Below are positions 21,578 to 27,328 of a DNA stretch of 64,000 nucleotides, piece by piece (position 1 is the first letter of the stretch; the number at the start of each line of letters is the position of its first letter). Location: contig JAUIMC010000012.1 in assembly GCA_030433215.1 (NCBI GenBank), positions 1-64,000 of the forward strand. Reading direction: 5' to 3'. This DNA comes from Alphaproteobacteria bacterium (GTDB taxonomy: Bacteria; Pseudomonadota; Alphaproteobacteria; Caulobacterales; Parvularculaceae). Under the pieces are notes generated by a model that did not search any database, had not been told where the DNA came from, and saw only the letters and a list, made by a program, of their open reading frames with translations. The position numbers were made by a program, and so were the translations under genes.

Positions 21578-22372
21578 ATGCCCCACGCTTCCGCCCTGAT
21601 GACCGTGATGATCAACGCCGCGCGCAAAGCCGCCCGGGGGCTGGTGCGCGATTTCGGCGAAACCCAGGCGTTGCAGGTCTCGCGCAAGGGCGCGGCGGAT
21701 TTCGTCAGCCGCGCAGACCACAAGGCCGAACAGGATATTTTCGAGGAGCTTTCCCGGGCGCGCCCGAAATACGGCTTCATCATGGAAGAGCGCGGCGAGA
21801 TCGAAGGGTCCGACAATTCCAACCGCTGGATCGTCGATCCCCTCGACGGCACCACGAATTTCCTGCACGGCCTGCCGCAATTCGCGATTTCCATCGCGCT
21901 TGAGCGCGACCGCCAGCCTTATGCGGGCGTCGTCTTCAACCCGGCGACGGACGAGCTTTTCTGGGCCGAGAAAGGCGAAGGCGCCTATATGAACGACCGG
22001 CGCATCCGCGTGTCGGGCCGCGACGATCTGAGCGCATGCCTCTTTGCTTGCGGGCTTCCCTTCGCCGGCCGGCCGGGCCGCAAGGAAGCCCTCGCCGAAG
22101 CCAAACGGGTCTTGAAGGAAACCGCCGGCGTCCGGCGTTTCGGCGCCGCGGCGCTCGACCTCGCTTTCGTGGCGGCGGGACGGTTCGACGGGTTCTGGGA
22201 ACGCCATCTCAATAGCTGGGACGTCGCCGCCGGATCGGTTCTTGTGCGCGAGGCCGGCGGGCATGTCACCGAGATCGAAGGCGGCAAGGATTTCCTCAAC
22301 GCCGGATCGATCCTTGCGAGCAATGCGGAAATTTACGAAGAGCTGAAGGCGCTCCTCCTCGATCAGGACTGA
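21578..22372 (+). CDS. suhB: Inositol monophosphatase family protein, SuhB-like
   Basis: 264 residues. Metal-binding motifs are FIMEERGEIEG, WIVDPLDGTTNFLHG (the D-P-(L/I)-D-G-T signature) and SWDVAAGSVLVREAGGH. This is the SuhB type that hydrolyses inositol monophosphates and similar sugar phosphates and, in enterobacteria, also binds transcription complexes. Start ATG at 21578. Its TGA overlaps the ATG of the next gene by one base (TGATG), so the phosphoglycerate-mutase-like gene is translationally coupled. The 175-nt gap to the divergent flippase gene shows only GC-rich sequence. It differs from the HisN-type paralogue at 26421. Confidence 0.9.
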   Translation: MPHASALMTVMINAARKAARGLVRDFGETQALQVSRKGAADFVSRADHKAEQDIFEELSRARPKYGFIMEERGEIEGSDNSNRWIVDPLDGTTNFLHGLPQFAISIALERDRQPYAGVVFNPATDELFWAEKGEGAYMNDRRIRVSGRDDLSACLFACGLPFAGRPGRKEALAEAKRVLKETAGVRRFGAAALDLAFVAAGRFDGFWERHLNSWDVAAGSVLVREAGGHVTEIEGGKDFLNAGSILASNAEIYEELKALLLDQD

Positions 22373-23152: not shown

Positions 23153-23401
23153 TTAAACGCAGCGGAAATGGCGGTAGCGCCAGCGCACCGAATGGGGATC
23201 GACGGTTTCCCCGTCATAGACGGCCCTCAGCCCGTAAGCCTCGCAATGGGCGTCGGCCTCGGCCTGGAGATCGTCGGGATCGAAATCGTAAGGATCATAG
23301 GGGATTGAAATTGACTCGTTGGAGACGGGCCCCGGATCGCTAGCGCACGCCCCCAGCATCGCCGCCGCCAGTCCCGCTAACGCAATACGCAACATTTTCA
23401 T
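23153..23401 (-). CDS. Small lipoprotein of unknown function
   Basis: The ATG at 23399-23401 is preferred since GAGGG lies nine nucleotides upstream; the track start at 23410 is too close to it. The protein has 82 residues with a lipobox (AGLAAAMLGAC) and a short acidic mature part, PYDFDPDDLQAEADAHCEAYG, ending RHFRCV. Two cysteines (HCEAYG and the penultimate C) could form a disulfide. Small lipoproteins of this kind are common in alphaproteobacteria and remain uncharacterised. Its stop codon is read into further open sequence in the same frame (see findings). Confidence 0.7.
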   Translation of the reverse strand: MKMLRIALAGLAAAMLGACASDPGPVSNESISIPYDPYDFDPDDLQAEADAHCEAYGLRAVYDGETVDPHSVRWRYRHFRCV

Positions 23402-23466
23402 GGATCCCATCCCTCAAGCCACGCCCCCGGCTGGTCCGGCGCAGCGTAACAAGCCTTGAGACAATT

Positions 23467-23495
23467 AAAAAGGGCGCGGGAGAGTACCCGCGCCC
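23467..23495 (-). terminator. Rho-independent terminator of the small heat-shock gene
   Basis: On the reverse strand GGGCGCGGG-TACTCT-CCCGCGCCC (9-bp perfect stem) is followed by TTTTT. It sits about 55 nt beyond the stop of the Hsp20 gene. Confidence 0.85.
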
Positions 23496-23549
23496 AAGTC
23501 AGAGGGGACTACACTCAAAAGGGGTGCTGGGACCCCGATGCTCGCTTGT

Positions 23550-24011
23550 TTAAGCGGCGTCGGCGTCTTTCAGGACCTTCACATTACCGGCCTTGCCGCC
23601 CGCGATGGAAATCTTGCGCGGCTTTGCGGACTCGGGGATTTCCCGGCGCAGTTCAACATTCAAAAGGCCATTGACGAGTGAGGCGCCCGCGACTTTCACA
23701 TGCTCGGCGAGCTGGAAGCGGCGCTGGAAAGAGCGCCCGGCAATGCCCTGATAGAGGAAGGTGCGGTCTTCGCCTTCTTCCTTCTGGGAGCCGGTGACGG
23801 TCAGGGTGTTCTCATGCAGCTCAACGTCAAGCTCGTCTTCGGAGAAGCCGGCGACGGCGAGCGTGATGCGGTAATCATTTTCATCGAGGCGCTCGATATT
23901 ATAGGGCGGATAGCCGCCGGTTTCGGCTTTGCCCATGGAGTCGAGCAAATCGAAAACGCGGTCGAAACCGACCGTCGAGCGATAAAGGGGGGCAAGATCG
24001 AAAGTACGCAT
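23550..24011 (-). CDS. Small heat-shock protein (Hsp20/alpha-crystallin family)
   Basis: 153 residues. The N-terminal arm FDLAPLYRSTVGFDRVFDLL is that of IbpA-type proteins, the alpha-crystallin domain contains YPPYNIERLDENDYRITLAVAG and SFQRRFQLAEHVKV, and the C-terminal part LVNGLLNVELRREIPESAKP contains the conserved G-L-L segment. The C-terminal I-x-I anchor is seen as KISIAG. It holds unfolded proteins as an ATP-independent chaperone. Upstream lie a RpoH-like promoter and a candidate ROSE RNA thermometer that buries the AAGGAGG ribosome binding site; downstream is a strong terminator. It appears monocistronic. Confidence 0.93.
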   Translation of the reverse strand: MRTFDLAPLYRSTVGFDRVFDLLDSMGKAETGGYPPYNIERLDENDYRITLAVAGFSEDELDVELHENTLTVTGSQKEEGEDRTFLYQGIAGRSFQRRFQLAEHVKVAGASLVNGLLNVELRREIPESAKPRKISIAGGKAGNVKVLKDADAA

Positions 24012-24108
24012 TTCAAAGTCCTCCTTGCTTCAAGCGAGGGTTGATGTCGCGCCCGCATTCCGCCGTCAGGCCGGAAAGGCGCGGACGGAGCCGGTATGGC
24101 CTCCGTCA
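24012..24108 (-). promoter_or_regulatory. Candidate ROSE-type RNA thermometer in the hsp20 5'-UTR
   Basis: The reverse-strand leader is about 97 nt if transcription starts near 24108. Its 3' end (24020-24039) folds as CCTCGCTTG-AAG-CAAGGAGG, an eight-pair stem with one bulged G that covers the whole SD. The upper strand contains TCGCT, matching the ROSE U(U/C)GCU motif that pairs with AGGA around a bulged G. Further upstream, GTCCGCGCC and GGGCGCGAC can pair around an inner CCGGCCTGACGGCGG hairpin. ROSE elements are known in small heat-shock genes of alphaproteobacteria. At high temperature the hairpin would melt and open the RBS. Confidence 0.7.
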
Positions 24109-24114
24109 TGATCG

Positions 24115-24142
24115 AGATAGGCGCCCGGCGCCGGATTTCAAT
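24115..24142 (-). promoter_or_regulatory. RpoH (sigma32)-type promoter of hsp20
   Basis: On the reverse strand ATTG, a 17-nt spacer, then CCTATCT. The alphaproteobacterial RpoH consensus is CTTG-N17/18-CYTATNT, so only the first base of the -35 box departs. The predicted start is near 24108, giving the leader annotated as the RNA thermometer. Confidence 0.6.
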
Positions 24143-24231
24143 AGGCGGCGATCAAGAAGCGGAGAGCCCGCTTCGCGCCCGGCCGGAAAGCATGGTAAAG
24201 AGCCGGCGACACCGAATGGGAGCGAGACAAA

Positions 24232-25134
24232 ATGATCACCAGGACAACCCTCTGGGCGGGACTCATCATGGCTTCGGCGGGGCTGGCGGCCTGCGGCGGC
24301 GAGCCTGAGACCGACAATCCGGCGGAAGAAGAAGCCGCCCCCATGGACGACGCGGCGCGGCTCGACGCCATCCTCGCCGGCGATCACCGCACGGACGAGG
24401 AGCGCGCCCGCGACCAGTATCGCCACCCTAAGGAAACGCTGCTCTTTTTCGGGCTCGAGCCGGACATGAGCGTGGTCGAGGTCTATCCCGGCGGCGGCTG
24501 GTACACCCAGGTGATCGCGCCCTATCTCGCCAAGGGCGACGGCAAGCTCTACGCCGCGAGCTTTAATCCGGGCGGCGCCAGCGAACGCGCCCTCGCCGCG
24601 CTCGATTCCTATCGCGAGACCTATGTGGAAAATCCCGAGCTTTACGGCGACATCGAAATGACCGCGCTCGGCGAGGGCGAGCATATCGCGCCCGAGGGCT
24701 CGGCGGACCTCGTGCTTACCTTCCGCAATATTCACAGCTTCATGGGCGCCGGCATGGCCGACTTCGCCTTCGAGGAATTCTATCGCGCGCTGAAGCCCGG
24801 CGGCGTTCTCGGCATTGTCGGACACCGCGCCGACGGCGCCGATCTGCCCGATGACGGCTCCACGGGCTATCTTTATACGGACGATGTCGTCGCCATGGCT
24901 GAAGCCGCCGGCTTCGACTTCGACGCGGCCTCGGAGATCAACGCCAACGCCAAGGATACGAAAGACCATCCTTTCGGCGTGTGGACCCTGCCGCCGGTGC
25001 GCCGTTCCTCCGCCGTGCGCGGCCAGGACAATCCGGGCTTCGACCGCGCCCACTACGATTCGATCGGCGAAAGCGACCGCTTCACCCTGAAATTCCGCAA
25101 GCCGATCGCCGCCGACGGGGCGCTTCTCGAATAA
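24232..25134 (+). CDS. Methyltransferase-like lipoprotein
   Basis: 300 residues. A lipoprotein signal peptide ends in MASAGLAACGG, so the product should be exported and membrane-anchored. The mature protein has a Rossmann methyltransferase-like layout: ETLLFFGLEPDMSVVEVYPG with GGGWYTQVIAPYLAKGDGKL (motif I), ADLVLTFRNIHSFMG, and ALKPGGVLGIVGHRADG. Export is odd for a SAM-dependent enzyme because SAM is cytoplasmic; the same fold-with-signal-peptide family occurs in other proteobacteria and has no settled function. It begins an operon, its TAA overlapping the ATG of the SCP2-like gene (TAATG). SD GGGAGCGAGA precedes the ATG. Confidence 0.8.
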   Translation: MITRTTLWAGLIMASAGLAACGGEPETDNPAEEEAAPMDDAARLDAILAGDHRTDEERARDQYRHPKETLLFFGLEPDMSVVEVYPGGGWYTQVIAPYLAKGDGKLYAASFNPGGASERALAALDSYRETYVENPELYGDIEMTALGEGEHIAPEGSADLVLTFRNIHSFMGAGMADFAFEEFYRALKPGGVLGIVGHRADGADLPDDGSTGYLYTDDVVAMAEAAGFDFDAASEINANAKDTKDHPFGVWTLPPVRRSSAVRGQDNPGFDRAHYDSIGESDRFTLKFRKPIAADGALLE

Positions 25135-25463
25135 TGGCGGACGGCAAGAAAAGCGAAGCCGCAAAGGACCCCCTTTACGCGGCGGCGGAGAAAGCCTTCG
25201 CCGCCCCGTTCGGCGCGATTGTGGAGCTGCGCGCCGAAGACGGCGACAGCCTTTGGGTTGACGGAAGGCAGGACCCGCCGCAGCTTCTCGCCGCCGCGCC
25301 CGAGAACGGCGGCCCGGCCTGCTGCTGGCGCGGCCCGAAGGAAACCCTGCAACGGGCGCTGGCGACGGCGCGCGCCTTTGACAGCGCCTTTCTTTCCGGG
25401 CGGCTCGCTGTCGCCGGCGATATGAGCGTCATGGCGCGGCTTCAACTCCATGAAGGACGATGA
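25134..25463 (+). CDS. Small SCP2-like sterol/lipid-binding domain protein
   Basis: The true start is the ATG at 25134, which overlaps the upstream TAA by one base; the ORF track shows a longer in-frame entry. The 109-residue product fits a truncated SCP2 domain: FGAIVELRAEDGDSLWVDG, then CCWRGPKETLQRALATAR, then FLSGRLAVAGDMSVMARLQ, the usual end of the fold where the hydrophobic tunnel is closed. SCP2 domains bind lipids or ubiquinone intermediates (as in UbiJ and UbiT). No signal peptide is seen. It is coupled at both ends, and its stop overlaps the hydrolase ATG (ATGA). Confidence 0.72.
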   Translation: MADGKKSEAAKDPLYAAAEKAFAAPFGAIVELRAEDGDSLWVDGRQDPPQLLAAAPENGGPACCWRGPKETLQRALATARAFDSAFLSGRLAVAGDMSVMARLQLHEGR

Positions 25464-26407
25464 GCCGTTTCATCGACATTGCTGACAACCCGGCGCCGCA
25501 AGGCGCCAGCGTCGAAACCATCGCAGCCCCGGACGGCGCGCCCCTCAGAGCCGCGTTCTTTCCGGCGCCAAACGCAAAAGGAACGGTCCTTCTCGTTACC
25601 GGTTGGGCAGAGTTCATCGAAAAATATTTCGAGACCGTGCGCGATCTTCAGGCGCGGGGTCTGAATGTCGCGATGATCGACTGGCGCGGCCAGGGGCTTT
25701 CGGATCGCGAAAGCGCGCGGGCCGCGAAATGGCGCGGCTTCTTCGACATTCTGAAAGACGATCTGAAGTACTTTCAGGAAAGCTATGTGAAGCCGCGTTT
25801 TTCGGGGCCTTACGTCCTCATGACCCATTCCATGGGCGGGACGCCGGCGCTGAAACTGCTCGCTGAAGGCTATAAGGGCTTTGCCCGCGCCGTTTTATGC
25901 GCGCCCATGACGCGGCTTTTTCCCGAACCCAAGAACAAGGTGCTTGGCTTCGCCGCGTCGACCGCCTGCACGCTCGGCTTCGCCTGCAACGATACCGCGC
26001 CGGCCAAAGACCTTTCCCAAGGGTTCGAGGGCAACATCCTGACCAGCGACAAGCCGCGCTATGACCGCTTTCGCGACTTGAAGGTCGCCGACCCGGAAGC
26101 CGCGCCGGCGGCGCCGACATTCGGCTGGGTCCATGCGGCGATGACGGCGAGCGCGGAACTGCACGCTGACGGTGCTCTCGAGGGGATCAATATCCCCGTG
26201 CTGATTATCTCCGCCGGAAACGAACAACTGATTGATGGCGCCGACCATGAAACCATCGCAGCGGCGAGCGAGATGATTTCCCTCGAGCTCATCCCCGGCG
26301 CACTGCATGAAATCATGATGGAGCGCGACGCCATTCGCGCGCTTTATTTCAAGGCGTTCGACGATTTCACCGCGCCGGTCTGGAAAAACAGCCCCGCCGG
26401 CGCCTAA
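25460..26407 (+). CDS. Alpha/beta hydrolase, lysophospholipase-like
   Basis: 315 residues. AKGTVLLVTGWAEFIEKYFE is the oxyanion-side strand-loop, VAMIDWRGQGLSDR follows, and the nucleophile elbow is VLMTHSMGGTPALK. The acid/base residues likely lie in LIISAGNEQLIDGADHET and IPGALHEIMMERD (catalytic His). This arrangement is typical of monoacylglycerol lipase/PldB-type lysophospholipases. It overlaps the SCP2-like gene by four bases (ATGA), so lipid binding and lipid hydrolysis are linked in one operon. It has no signal peptide. Substrate specificity is not readable. Confidence 0.88.
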   Translation: MSRFIDIADNPAPQGASVETIAAPDGAPLRAAFFPAPNAKGTVLLVTGWAEFIEKYFETVRDLQARGLNVAMIDWRGQGLSDRESARAAKWRGFFDILKDDLKYFQESYVKPRFSGPYVLMTHSMGGTPALKLLAEGYKGFARAVLCAPMTRLFPEPKNKVLGFAASTACTLGFACNDTAPAKDLSQGFEGNILTSDKPRYDRFRDLKVADPEAAPAAPTFGWVHAAMTASAELHADGALEGINIPVLIISAGNEQLIDGADHETIAAASEMISLELIPGALHEIMMERDAIRALYFKAFDDFTAPVWKNSPAGA

Positions 26408-26420
26408 GGCACGACACGCT

Positions 26421-27230
26421 TTATCCCGCCAACAGCGCCAGCGCCGCCGCATGAAGCTCCGGCGTCGCCGCGGCGATCAGTTCGCCTTTTTCATCCGTTC
26501 CCGGCGGATCGCCCTGCCAGTTGGTGACGACGCCGCCCGCGCCCTCCACCACCGGGAGCAGCGCGGCGTAATCATGGCGCTGCAAGGCGCTTTCGATGAC
26601 AATGTCGATTTCGCCATGCGCCAGAAGGCTGTAGGCGTAAGCGTCGAGGGAAAAGCGCGCCACCCGCGCGGCCTTGGCGACGCGCGCGAAGGCCGCAGCT
26701 TCCGCATCGGAAAAATAGCCTGTAGGCAAGGGATCGGTGGTGGAAAGGCGCGCCTTCGCGATGTCTTTCAGGCCGCTGGTTTTGACCTCAAGGGTTTCGC
26801 TGGCGCGCGCATAGCGCGTCTTTCCAGCCCATCCCGTCCAGCGTTCCTCCGTGAACGGCTGATCGATGAGACCGAAAACCGGCGCGCCCTCATATTCGAG
26901 CGCAATGAGCGTCGTCCAGCTTGTGGTTCCGCACATGAAGGCGCGCGTGCCGTCGACAGGGTCGAGCACCCAGCGCCAGGGACTGTCGCCCTGCTTTTCG
27001 CCGAACTCCTCCCCGAGAATTGCGTGCTTTGGATAAACGCTTTCGATCATCCGCCGGAGCGCGCGCTCGGCCTCGCGGTCGGCGTCGGTCACCGGGTCGA
27101 ACCAGGGGCCGGCCTTGTTGAAAATCATCGCGCCTTTACGAAAGCGCGTAAGGCTTTCGGCGCGCGCCGCATCGGCGAGACGGTCTGCGAACGCGGCGAA
27201 TTCTGAAAGATCGTTTTGGGAAAAGGACAT
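26421..27230 (-). CDS. hisN: Histidinol-phosphatase, HisN type (inositol monophosphatase family)
   Basis: 269 residues. Metal motifs ILGEEFGEKQGDS, WRWVLDPVDGTRAFMCG and LDAYAYSLLAHGEIDIVIES identify the HisN branch, which dephosphorylates histidinol phosphate in the histidine pathway of many alphaproteobacteria. The TRAFMCG variant of the DGT signature distinguishes it from the SuhB-like gene at 21578. It is convergent with the hydrolase gene (13 nt gap) and has no his genes beside it other than hisS far downstream. AAAAGGACATG gives a plausible start. Confidence 0.88.
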   Translation of the reverse strand: MSFSQNDLSEFAAFADRLADAARAESLTRFRKGAMIFNKAGPWFDPVTDADREAERALRRMIESVYPKHAILGEEFGEKQGDSPWRWVLDPVDGTRAFMCGTTSWTTLIALEYEGAPVFGLIDQPFTEERWTGWAGKTRYARASETLEVKTSGLKDIAKARLSTTDPLPTGYFSDAEAAAFARVAKAARVARFSLDAYAYSLLAHGEIDIVIESALQRHDYAALLPVVEGAGGVVTNWQGDPPGTDEKGELIAAATPELHAAALALLAG

Positions 27231-27328
27231 GGCGCGGCGATCATGATGACCGCCGCGCCCAAGTTCAAGTCATTCGGTGCAAAGGAAGAGAGACGCCGCC
27301 GCTTTTTCGGCGGTCGGTCTCAGGGTTT

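What the first reader, a model, noticed from the sequence alone, without database searches (positions are those of the whole stretch)
24232..26407. Operon of methyltransferase-like lipoprotein, SCP2-like protein and hydrolase with overlapping genes
All three genes overlap (TAATG, ATGA). An exported methyltransferase-fold protein with SAM-binding-type motifs is paradoxical, since SAM is cytoplasmic. With a lipid-binding SCP2 domain and a lysophospholipase-like enzyme the operon may act in lipid handling at the membrane.
Basis: partly seen in the sequence, partly recalled or inferred. Interest (0 to 1): 0.55.

Follow-up and report, generated by a model that had tools for sequence, protein, structure and literature searches.

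The report
Exported methyltransferase-fold protein, lipid-linked operon
A three-gene bacterial operon makes an exported protein with the fold of a methyltransferase but without the conserved adenosine-binding part of the cofactor site, next to two cytoplasmic lipid-handling proteins; every genome sampled from its order has the exported protein, and nobody knows what it does.

Summary
Three overlapping genes (TAATG, ATGA) encode a 300-aa lipoprotein with a class I methyltransferase fold (P1), a 109-aa SCP2-domain protein (P2) and a PldB/monoglyceride-lipase-type hydrolase (P3). Export is a trait of the whole P1 family: 85 of 89 homologues pass a strict signal-peptide test against 4 of 68 control genes. 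In 22 of 80 no alternative start exists behind the signal, and the anchor type has switched about ten times on the tree. P1 occurs in 120 of 120 sampled genomes of the order. P1-SCP2-P3 is held in 25 of 25 genomes of the window's family and, more loosely, in three or four other families.

The paradox partly dissolves. The fold is clear (AlphaFold pLDDT 95), but the acidic residue that binds the SAM ribose is present in only 4 of 72 homologues (UbiE control 28 of 28), and the adenosine side (beta2, beta3) is the least conserved part of the cleft, while the other strand ends carry invariant polar residues. P1 is most likely a periplasmic enzyme or binding protein that no longer uses SAM classically. 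P2 and P3 have no signal peptides, so they are cytoplasmic.

The parts
24232..25134 (+). P1: exported lipoprotein with class I methyltransferase fold, 300 aa
24232..24294 (+). signal peptide and lipobox LAAC (Cys21) of P1
   Evidence: only 2 amino-acid changes against 5 synonymous ones versus Marinicaulis flavus, while the 60 bp upstream are 32% identical without gaps
24472..24507 (+). P1 beta1 and glycine loop VVEVYPGGGWYT (residues 81-92): Glu83 kept, first Gly of GxGxG replaced
24559..24561 (+). P1 Ser110, end of beta2, place of the ribose-binding Asp/Glu of SAM methyltransferases; acidic in 4 of 72 homologues
24718..24741 (+). P1 signature at end of beta4, TFRNIHSF (residues 163-170); Arg165 and His168 invariant
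24931..24996 (+). P1 family signature SEINANAKDTKDHPFGVWTLPP (residues 234-255)
25066..25101 (+). P1 C-terminal signature GESDRFTLKFRK (residues 279-290)
25134..25463 (+). P2: SCP2-domain protein, 109 aa, no signal peptide
25460..26407 (+). P3: alpha/beta hydrolase of PldB / monoglyceride-lipase type, 315 aa, no signal peptide
25823..25840 (+). P3 nucleophile elbow THSMGG with Ser124 (69 of 69 homologues); His283 further on (64 of 64)

Best explanation
P1 is a member of a large, uncharacterised family of exported class I methyltransferase-fold proteins. Shown: the family is conserved in sequence, is consistently preceded by an export signal, and in this order is genetically linked to an SCP2 carrier and a lipase-like hydrolase. 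Inferred: P1 works outside the inner membrane (here as a lipoprotein), without SAM as a classical co-substrate. The adenosine half of the old SAM cleft is free to vary, while the invariant residues Glu83, Arg165-Asn166-x-His168, His198-Arg199, Ser234-Glu235-x-Asn237-x-Asn239-x-x-Asp242 and the C-terminal GESDR form a new polar active site or ligand pocket. Inferred, weaker: P1 handles an envelope molecule, probably lipid-derived; on the cytoplasmic side the SCP2 protein carries the acyl product and the PldB-type hydrolase cleaves it, so the operon is one envelope-lipid turnover unit split across the membrane.
For: Export: 51 SPI plus 34 lipoprotein signals in 89 homologues, controls 4 of 68; 22 of 80 have no start codon between signal and core; about 10 switches of anchor type (at least 4 forced by starred branches) with export kept. 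Fold: pLDDT 95, TM 0.73 to 3dh0 (normalised by target). Cofactor side lost: acidic beta2 residue 4 of 72, UbiE 28 of 28 and most other class I methyltransferases of this genome; information 3.5, 3.9 and 3.3 bits at the ends of beta1, beta4 and beta6 against 1.4 and 1.2 at beta2 and beta3 (mean 2.4). Linkage: 68 of 105 P3 genes have P1 upstream within 1.6 kb on the same strand, 25 of 25 in the own family, with SCP2 in the gap wherever a locus with room for it was read. SCP2-P3 pairs also exist without P1.
Against: Loss of the beta2 acid does not exclude SAM: one cytoplasmic methyltransferase of this genome, with a cyclopropane-synthase-like motif, also lacks it. The glycine loop is kept. Outside the order P1 has other neighbours, and in family f3 it is usually unlinked from P3, so the lipid link is not universal. 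No structure with ligand, no activity and no localisation experiment exists. Signal peptides were called with a home-made rule, not SignalP.
Confidence: 0.45

Rival explanations
1. P1 is a true SAM-dependent methyltransferase that works in the periplasm, with SAM from outside or carried along in a Tat-exported folded protein, and methylates an envelope lipid or protein.
For: Glycine loop and Glu83 kept; nearest folds are SAM enzymes; about nine homologues, mostly Caulobacteraceae-type, have convincing twin-arginine signals that would allow export of the folded, loaded protein.
Against: Most homologues have plain Sec-type signals with no twin arginine; ribose-binding acid lost in 68 of 72 and beta3 not conserved; no source of periplasmic SAM is known to me.
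Confidence: 0.2
2. P1 is a non-enzymatic binding or scaffold lipoprotein of the envelope built on a dead methyltransferase fold.
For: Cofactor side degenerate; anchoring mode varies freely.
Against: The many invariant charged and polar residues at the ends of beta1, beta4, beta5 and beta6 look catalytic rather than structural.
Confidence: 0.2
3. P1 is cytoplasmic, from an internal start, as happened with Bordetella FmtB (PDB 3OCJ), which was annotated as exported.
For: FmtB precedent (PMC5426589); P1 has an in-frame ATG at codon 38.
Against: Signals in 85 of 89 homologues, 22 of 80 without any internal start codon, synonymous-biased change across the signal codons, anchor switching with export kept.
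Confidence: 0.04
4. The three genes share a promoter but not a pathway: P1 is an independent envelope protein, and SCP2-P3 is its own cytoplasmic module.
For: SCP2-P3 pair without P1 in several lineages and P1 without the pair elsewhere; different compartments.
Against: Overlapping genes and 25 of 25 conservation in the family; linkage in several families of the order. P1 next to a different alpha/beta hydrolase in Shewanella, Ferrimonas and Neiella.
Confidence: 0.3

Closest known systems
Class I SAM-dependent methyltransferase superfamily (3dh0, RebM, SpnF, UbiE)
   Same: Seven-strand Rossmann-like fold, glycine loop after beta1, LKPGG motif
   Different: Exported; beta2 acid and beta3 motif not conserved; long family-specific C-terminal half with SEINAN...VWTLPP...GESDRMTL
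COG4798 'predicted methyltransferase' (recalled, not tested); homologues named 'class I SAM-dependent methyltransferase' in plasmid records
   Same: Probably the same family by annotation
   Different: No function, localisation or cofactor work found in the open-access papers searched here
FmtB of Bordetella, fatty acid methyltransferase (PDB 3OCJ, PMC5426589)
   Same: Methyltransferase fold, once annotated as exported, lipid substrate, membrane-associated
   Different: Start codon lies behind the hydrophobic segment so it is cytoplasmic; described as SAM-dependent
UbiJ/UbiT-type SCP2 proteins (for P2)
   Same: SCP2 fold; UbiJ is the best structural match
   Different: Stand-alone 109-aa protein with a CxWR insertion typical of this family of genomes, not in a ubi cluster
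PldB lysophospholipase L2 / monoglyceride lipase (for P3)
   Same: Hydrolase_4 domain, Ser124-His283, cytoplasmic
   Different: Below the PldB equivalog cut-off (102.7 vs 362 bits)

Membership tests
Class I SAM-dependent methyltransferase | Rossmann-like methyltransferase fold | tested here: met
   AlphaFold pLDDT 95; over 1000 PDB matches with E<=0.001, the top 50 nearly all SAM methyltransferases
Class I SAM-dependent methyltransferase | Motif I, acid-x-G-x-G-x-G | tested here: inconclusive
   E-x-x-P-G-G-G: acid and last two Gly kept, first Gly replaced by W/S/T/Y and others
Class I SAM-dependent methyltransferase | Asp/Glu at end of beta2 (ribose) | tested here: not met
   4 of 72; UbiE control 28 of 28
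Class I SAM-dependent methyltransferase | SAM binding and methyl transfer | not testable with these tools
   needs biochemistry
Bacterial lipoprotein | Signal peptide with lipobox | tested here: met
   MITRTTLWAGLIMASAGLAAC, and 34 of 89 homologues
SCP2 domain (P2) | PF02036 above gathering score; SCP2 fold | tested here: met
   24.4 vs 21.3 bits; best PDB matches UbiJ-SCP2 and SCP2
Lysophospholipase L2 PldB (P3) | NCBIfam PRK10749 equivalog cut-off | tested here: not met
   102.7 vs 362 bits; Hydrolase_4 superfamily is met

The most novel reading that the evidence does not exclude
A whole family of exported methyltransferase-fold proteins, conserved across an order of Alphaproteobacteria and present in other Proteobacteria and on cyanobacterial plasmids, has given up the adenosine half of the SAM site and evolved a new periplasmic enzymatic activity on envelope lipids.
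Probability: 0.3. Interest if true: 0.75.

Novelty: new variant of a known kind. Interest (0 to 1): 0.5.

Why it matters
Where homologues in the records searched carry a name, it is methyltransferase or class I SAM-dependent methyltransferase, yet the protein sits where SAM is not thought to be and lacks the usual ribose anchor. If the reading holds, these annotations name the wrong chemistry, and a protein found in all 120 sampled genomes of one order (which includes Caulobacter relatives) is an untested envelope factor. Caulobacter mutants can be made easily, so the question is directly testable.

Tried and rejected
Internal-start (FmtB-type) misannotation: rejected. My first loose signal classifier: dropped, because it called signals in 153 of 325 control ORFs. 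Ole (olefin) cluster next to P1 in Shewanella: rejected, the genes are FadD and RNase D. RNA families in 23400-27300: none. Sigma-70 promoter scan: nothing found. Papers on COG4798 or exported/periplasmic methyltransferases: none about this family. Direct inspection of the pocket in the model: not possible, no coordinates are returned.

Full report
What is there. Three genes on the + strand overlap as described: P1 24232-25134, P2 25134-25463 (TAATG), P3 25460-26407 (ATGA). P1 starts with MITRTTLWAGLIMASAGLAAC, a lipoprotein signal. P2 passes the Pfam SCP2 cut-off, and an AlphaFold model on 32 homologues (pLDDT 86.5) matches UbiJ-SCP2 and other SCP2 structures best. P3 is an alpha/beta hydrolase whose nearest curated model is lysophospholipase L2 and whose nearest solved relatives are monoglyceride lipases. 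Its Ser124 and His283 are invariant in aligned homologues. An Hsp20 gene runs the other way upstream, and an inositol-monophosphatase-family gene runs the other way downstream.

Is P1 really exported? The warning case is Bordetella FmtB (3OCJ), also a methyltransferase-fold protein annotated as exported, whose real start lies behind the hydrophobic stretch. P1 was therefore tested as a family. Of 89 homologues, 51 have a signal-peptidase-I type signal and 34 a lipobox under a strict rule. Of 68 control genes from the same loci, allowed any start in their first 150 bases, 4 do. In 22 of 80 homologues no ATG, GTG or TTG lies between the signal and the conserved core, so the signal must be translated. 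On a tree of 72 sequences the anchor type changes about ten times (at least four times on well-supported branches) while export stays. In the window's gene, the signal codons differ from Marinicaulis flavus by 5 synonymous and 2 amino-acid changes, while the upstream 60 bp show only 32% identity (ungapped). A sister subfamily without the C-terminal extension also carries signals in the members read. About nine homologues have convincing twin-arginine signals (ten pattern hits, one of them doubtful). These results support export strongly. They rest on my own rule, not on SignalP or an experiment.

Does it keep a SAM site? The model from 72 homologues is confident (pLDDT 95, pTM 0.92) and matches class I methyltransferases only as a fold: TM-score about 0.5-0.6 by query, 0.73 by target for 3dh0, 12-19% identity. 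Motif I reads E-x-x-P-G-G-G; the acid and last glycines are kept, the first glycine is not. At the end of beta2, where SAM enzymes bind the ribose with Asp or Glu (aligned with 3dh0), only 4 of 72 are acidic. UbiE from 28 alphaproteobacterial genomes has Asp in 28, and 15 of the 16 other class I methyltransferases that I could read in this genome have Asp or Glu there (counted by eye). Mean information in bits at the strand ends is 3.5 (beta1), 3.9 (beta4), 2.6 (beta5), 3.3 (beta6) and 2.7 (beta7), but 1.4 (beta2) and 1.2 (beta3), with an overall mean of 2.4. The methionine and substrate sides of the cleft are thus under strong constraint while the adenosine side is not. I infer that P1 no longer uses SAM in the classical way.

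Is the operon meaningful? P1 relatives were found in 120 of 120 sampled genomes of the order and about 14% of genomes sampled across the class (26 of 190). P3 was found in 105 of the 120, and 68 of these have P1 upstream on the same strand within 1.6 kb. In the window's own family it is 25 of 25, with a gap of 304-428 bp; every such locus that was read in full holds an SCP2 gene in the gap. Other families show the same order, sometimes with tandem P1 copies, sometimes with P1 directly next to P3 without SCP2; in family f3 the genes are mostly apart. SCP2-P3 pairs also occur without P1 nearby, so I infer that this pair is the older core. Outside the order P1 has varied neighbours: an unrelated alpha/beta hydrolase upstream of fadD in Shewanella, Ferrimonas and Neiella, a sulfite-dehydrogenase-like pair in Oxalobacteraceae, GARS in Alteromonadales.

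What it probably does. Shown: export signals, fold, order-wide conservation, linkage. Inferred: P1 acts in the envelope on a molecule bound in the remodelled cleft; P2 and P3 act in the cytoplasm on a lipid or acyl compound; together they form a lipid turnover or salvage unit across the inner membrane. One independent hint: insertion in Caulobacter CC_2253, 'lysophospholipase L2', lowers biofilm formation (PMC13001252, Table 3). That CC_2253 is the P3 orthologue is my inference (P3 has a single match in nearly every Caulobacteraceae-type genome sampled) and was not tested.

Limits. No ligand, no localisation and no enzymology. Genome sampling was even but not exhaustive. The COG4798 name is from memory. 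The linkage table was made from coordinates copied out, in which a few lower-ranked P1 matches were not listed, so unlinked counts are upper bounds.

Noticed in passing
L013, L015, L018, L028, L054 (Caulobacter/Phenylobacterium): P1 is present as tandem copies, one a Sec-type periplasmic form and one with a twin-arginine lipoprotein signal.
   Followed up: partly
L071, L075, L081, L083, L084: P1 plus an unrelated alpha/beta hydrolase is inserted between tsaB and fadD-rnd in several Alteromonadales genomes.
   Followed up: partly
L021 6774-8646 (also L027, L037, L050): P1 stands directly upstream of a molybdopterin sulfite-dehydrogenase-like gene and a cytochrome c gene in Oxalobacteraceae.
   Followed up: no
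L055 5815-7917: A P1 homologue with a C-terminal low-complexity Lys/Thr-rich tail of about 350 residues; long open frames also in f148 genomes (G195, G200, G205 and others).
   Followed up: no
L106-L110, L113, L114, L003: A sister subfamily of exported methyltransferase-fold proteins lacks the C-terminal extension and has Asn, Gln or Tyr near the end of beta2.
   Followed up: partly
window 21578-22372 (+) and 26421-27230 (-): Two inositol-monophosphatase-family genes lie within 5 kb of each other, on either side of the operon.
   Followed up: no
L002, L003, L004 (own genome): Three further, divergent exported paralogues of P1 in the same genome.
   Followed up: partly
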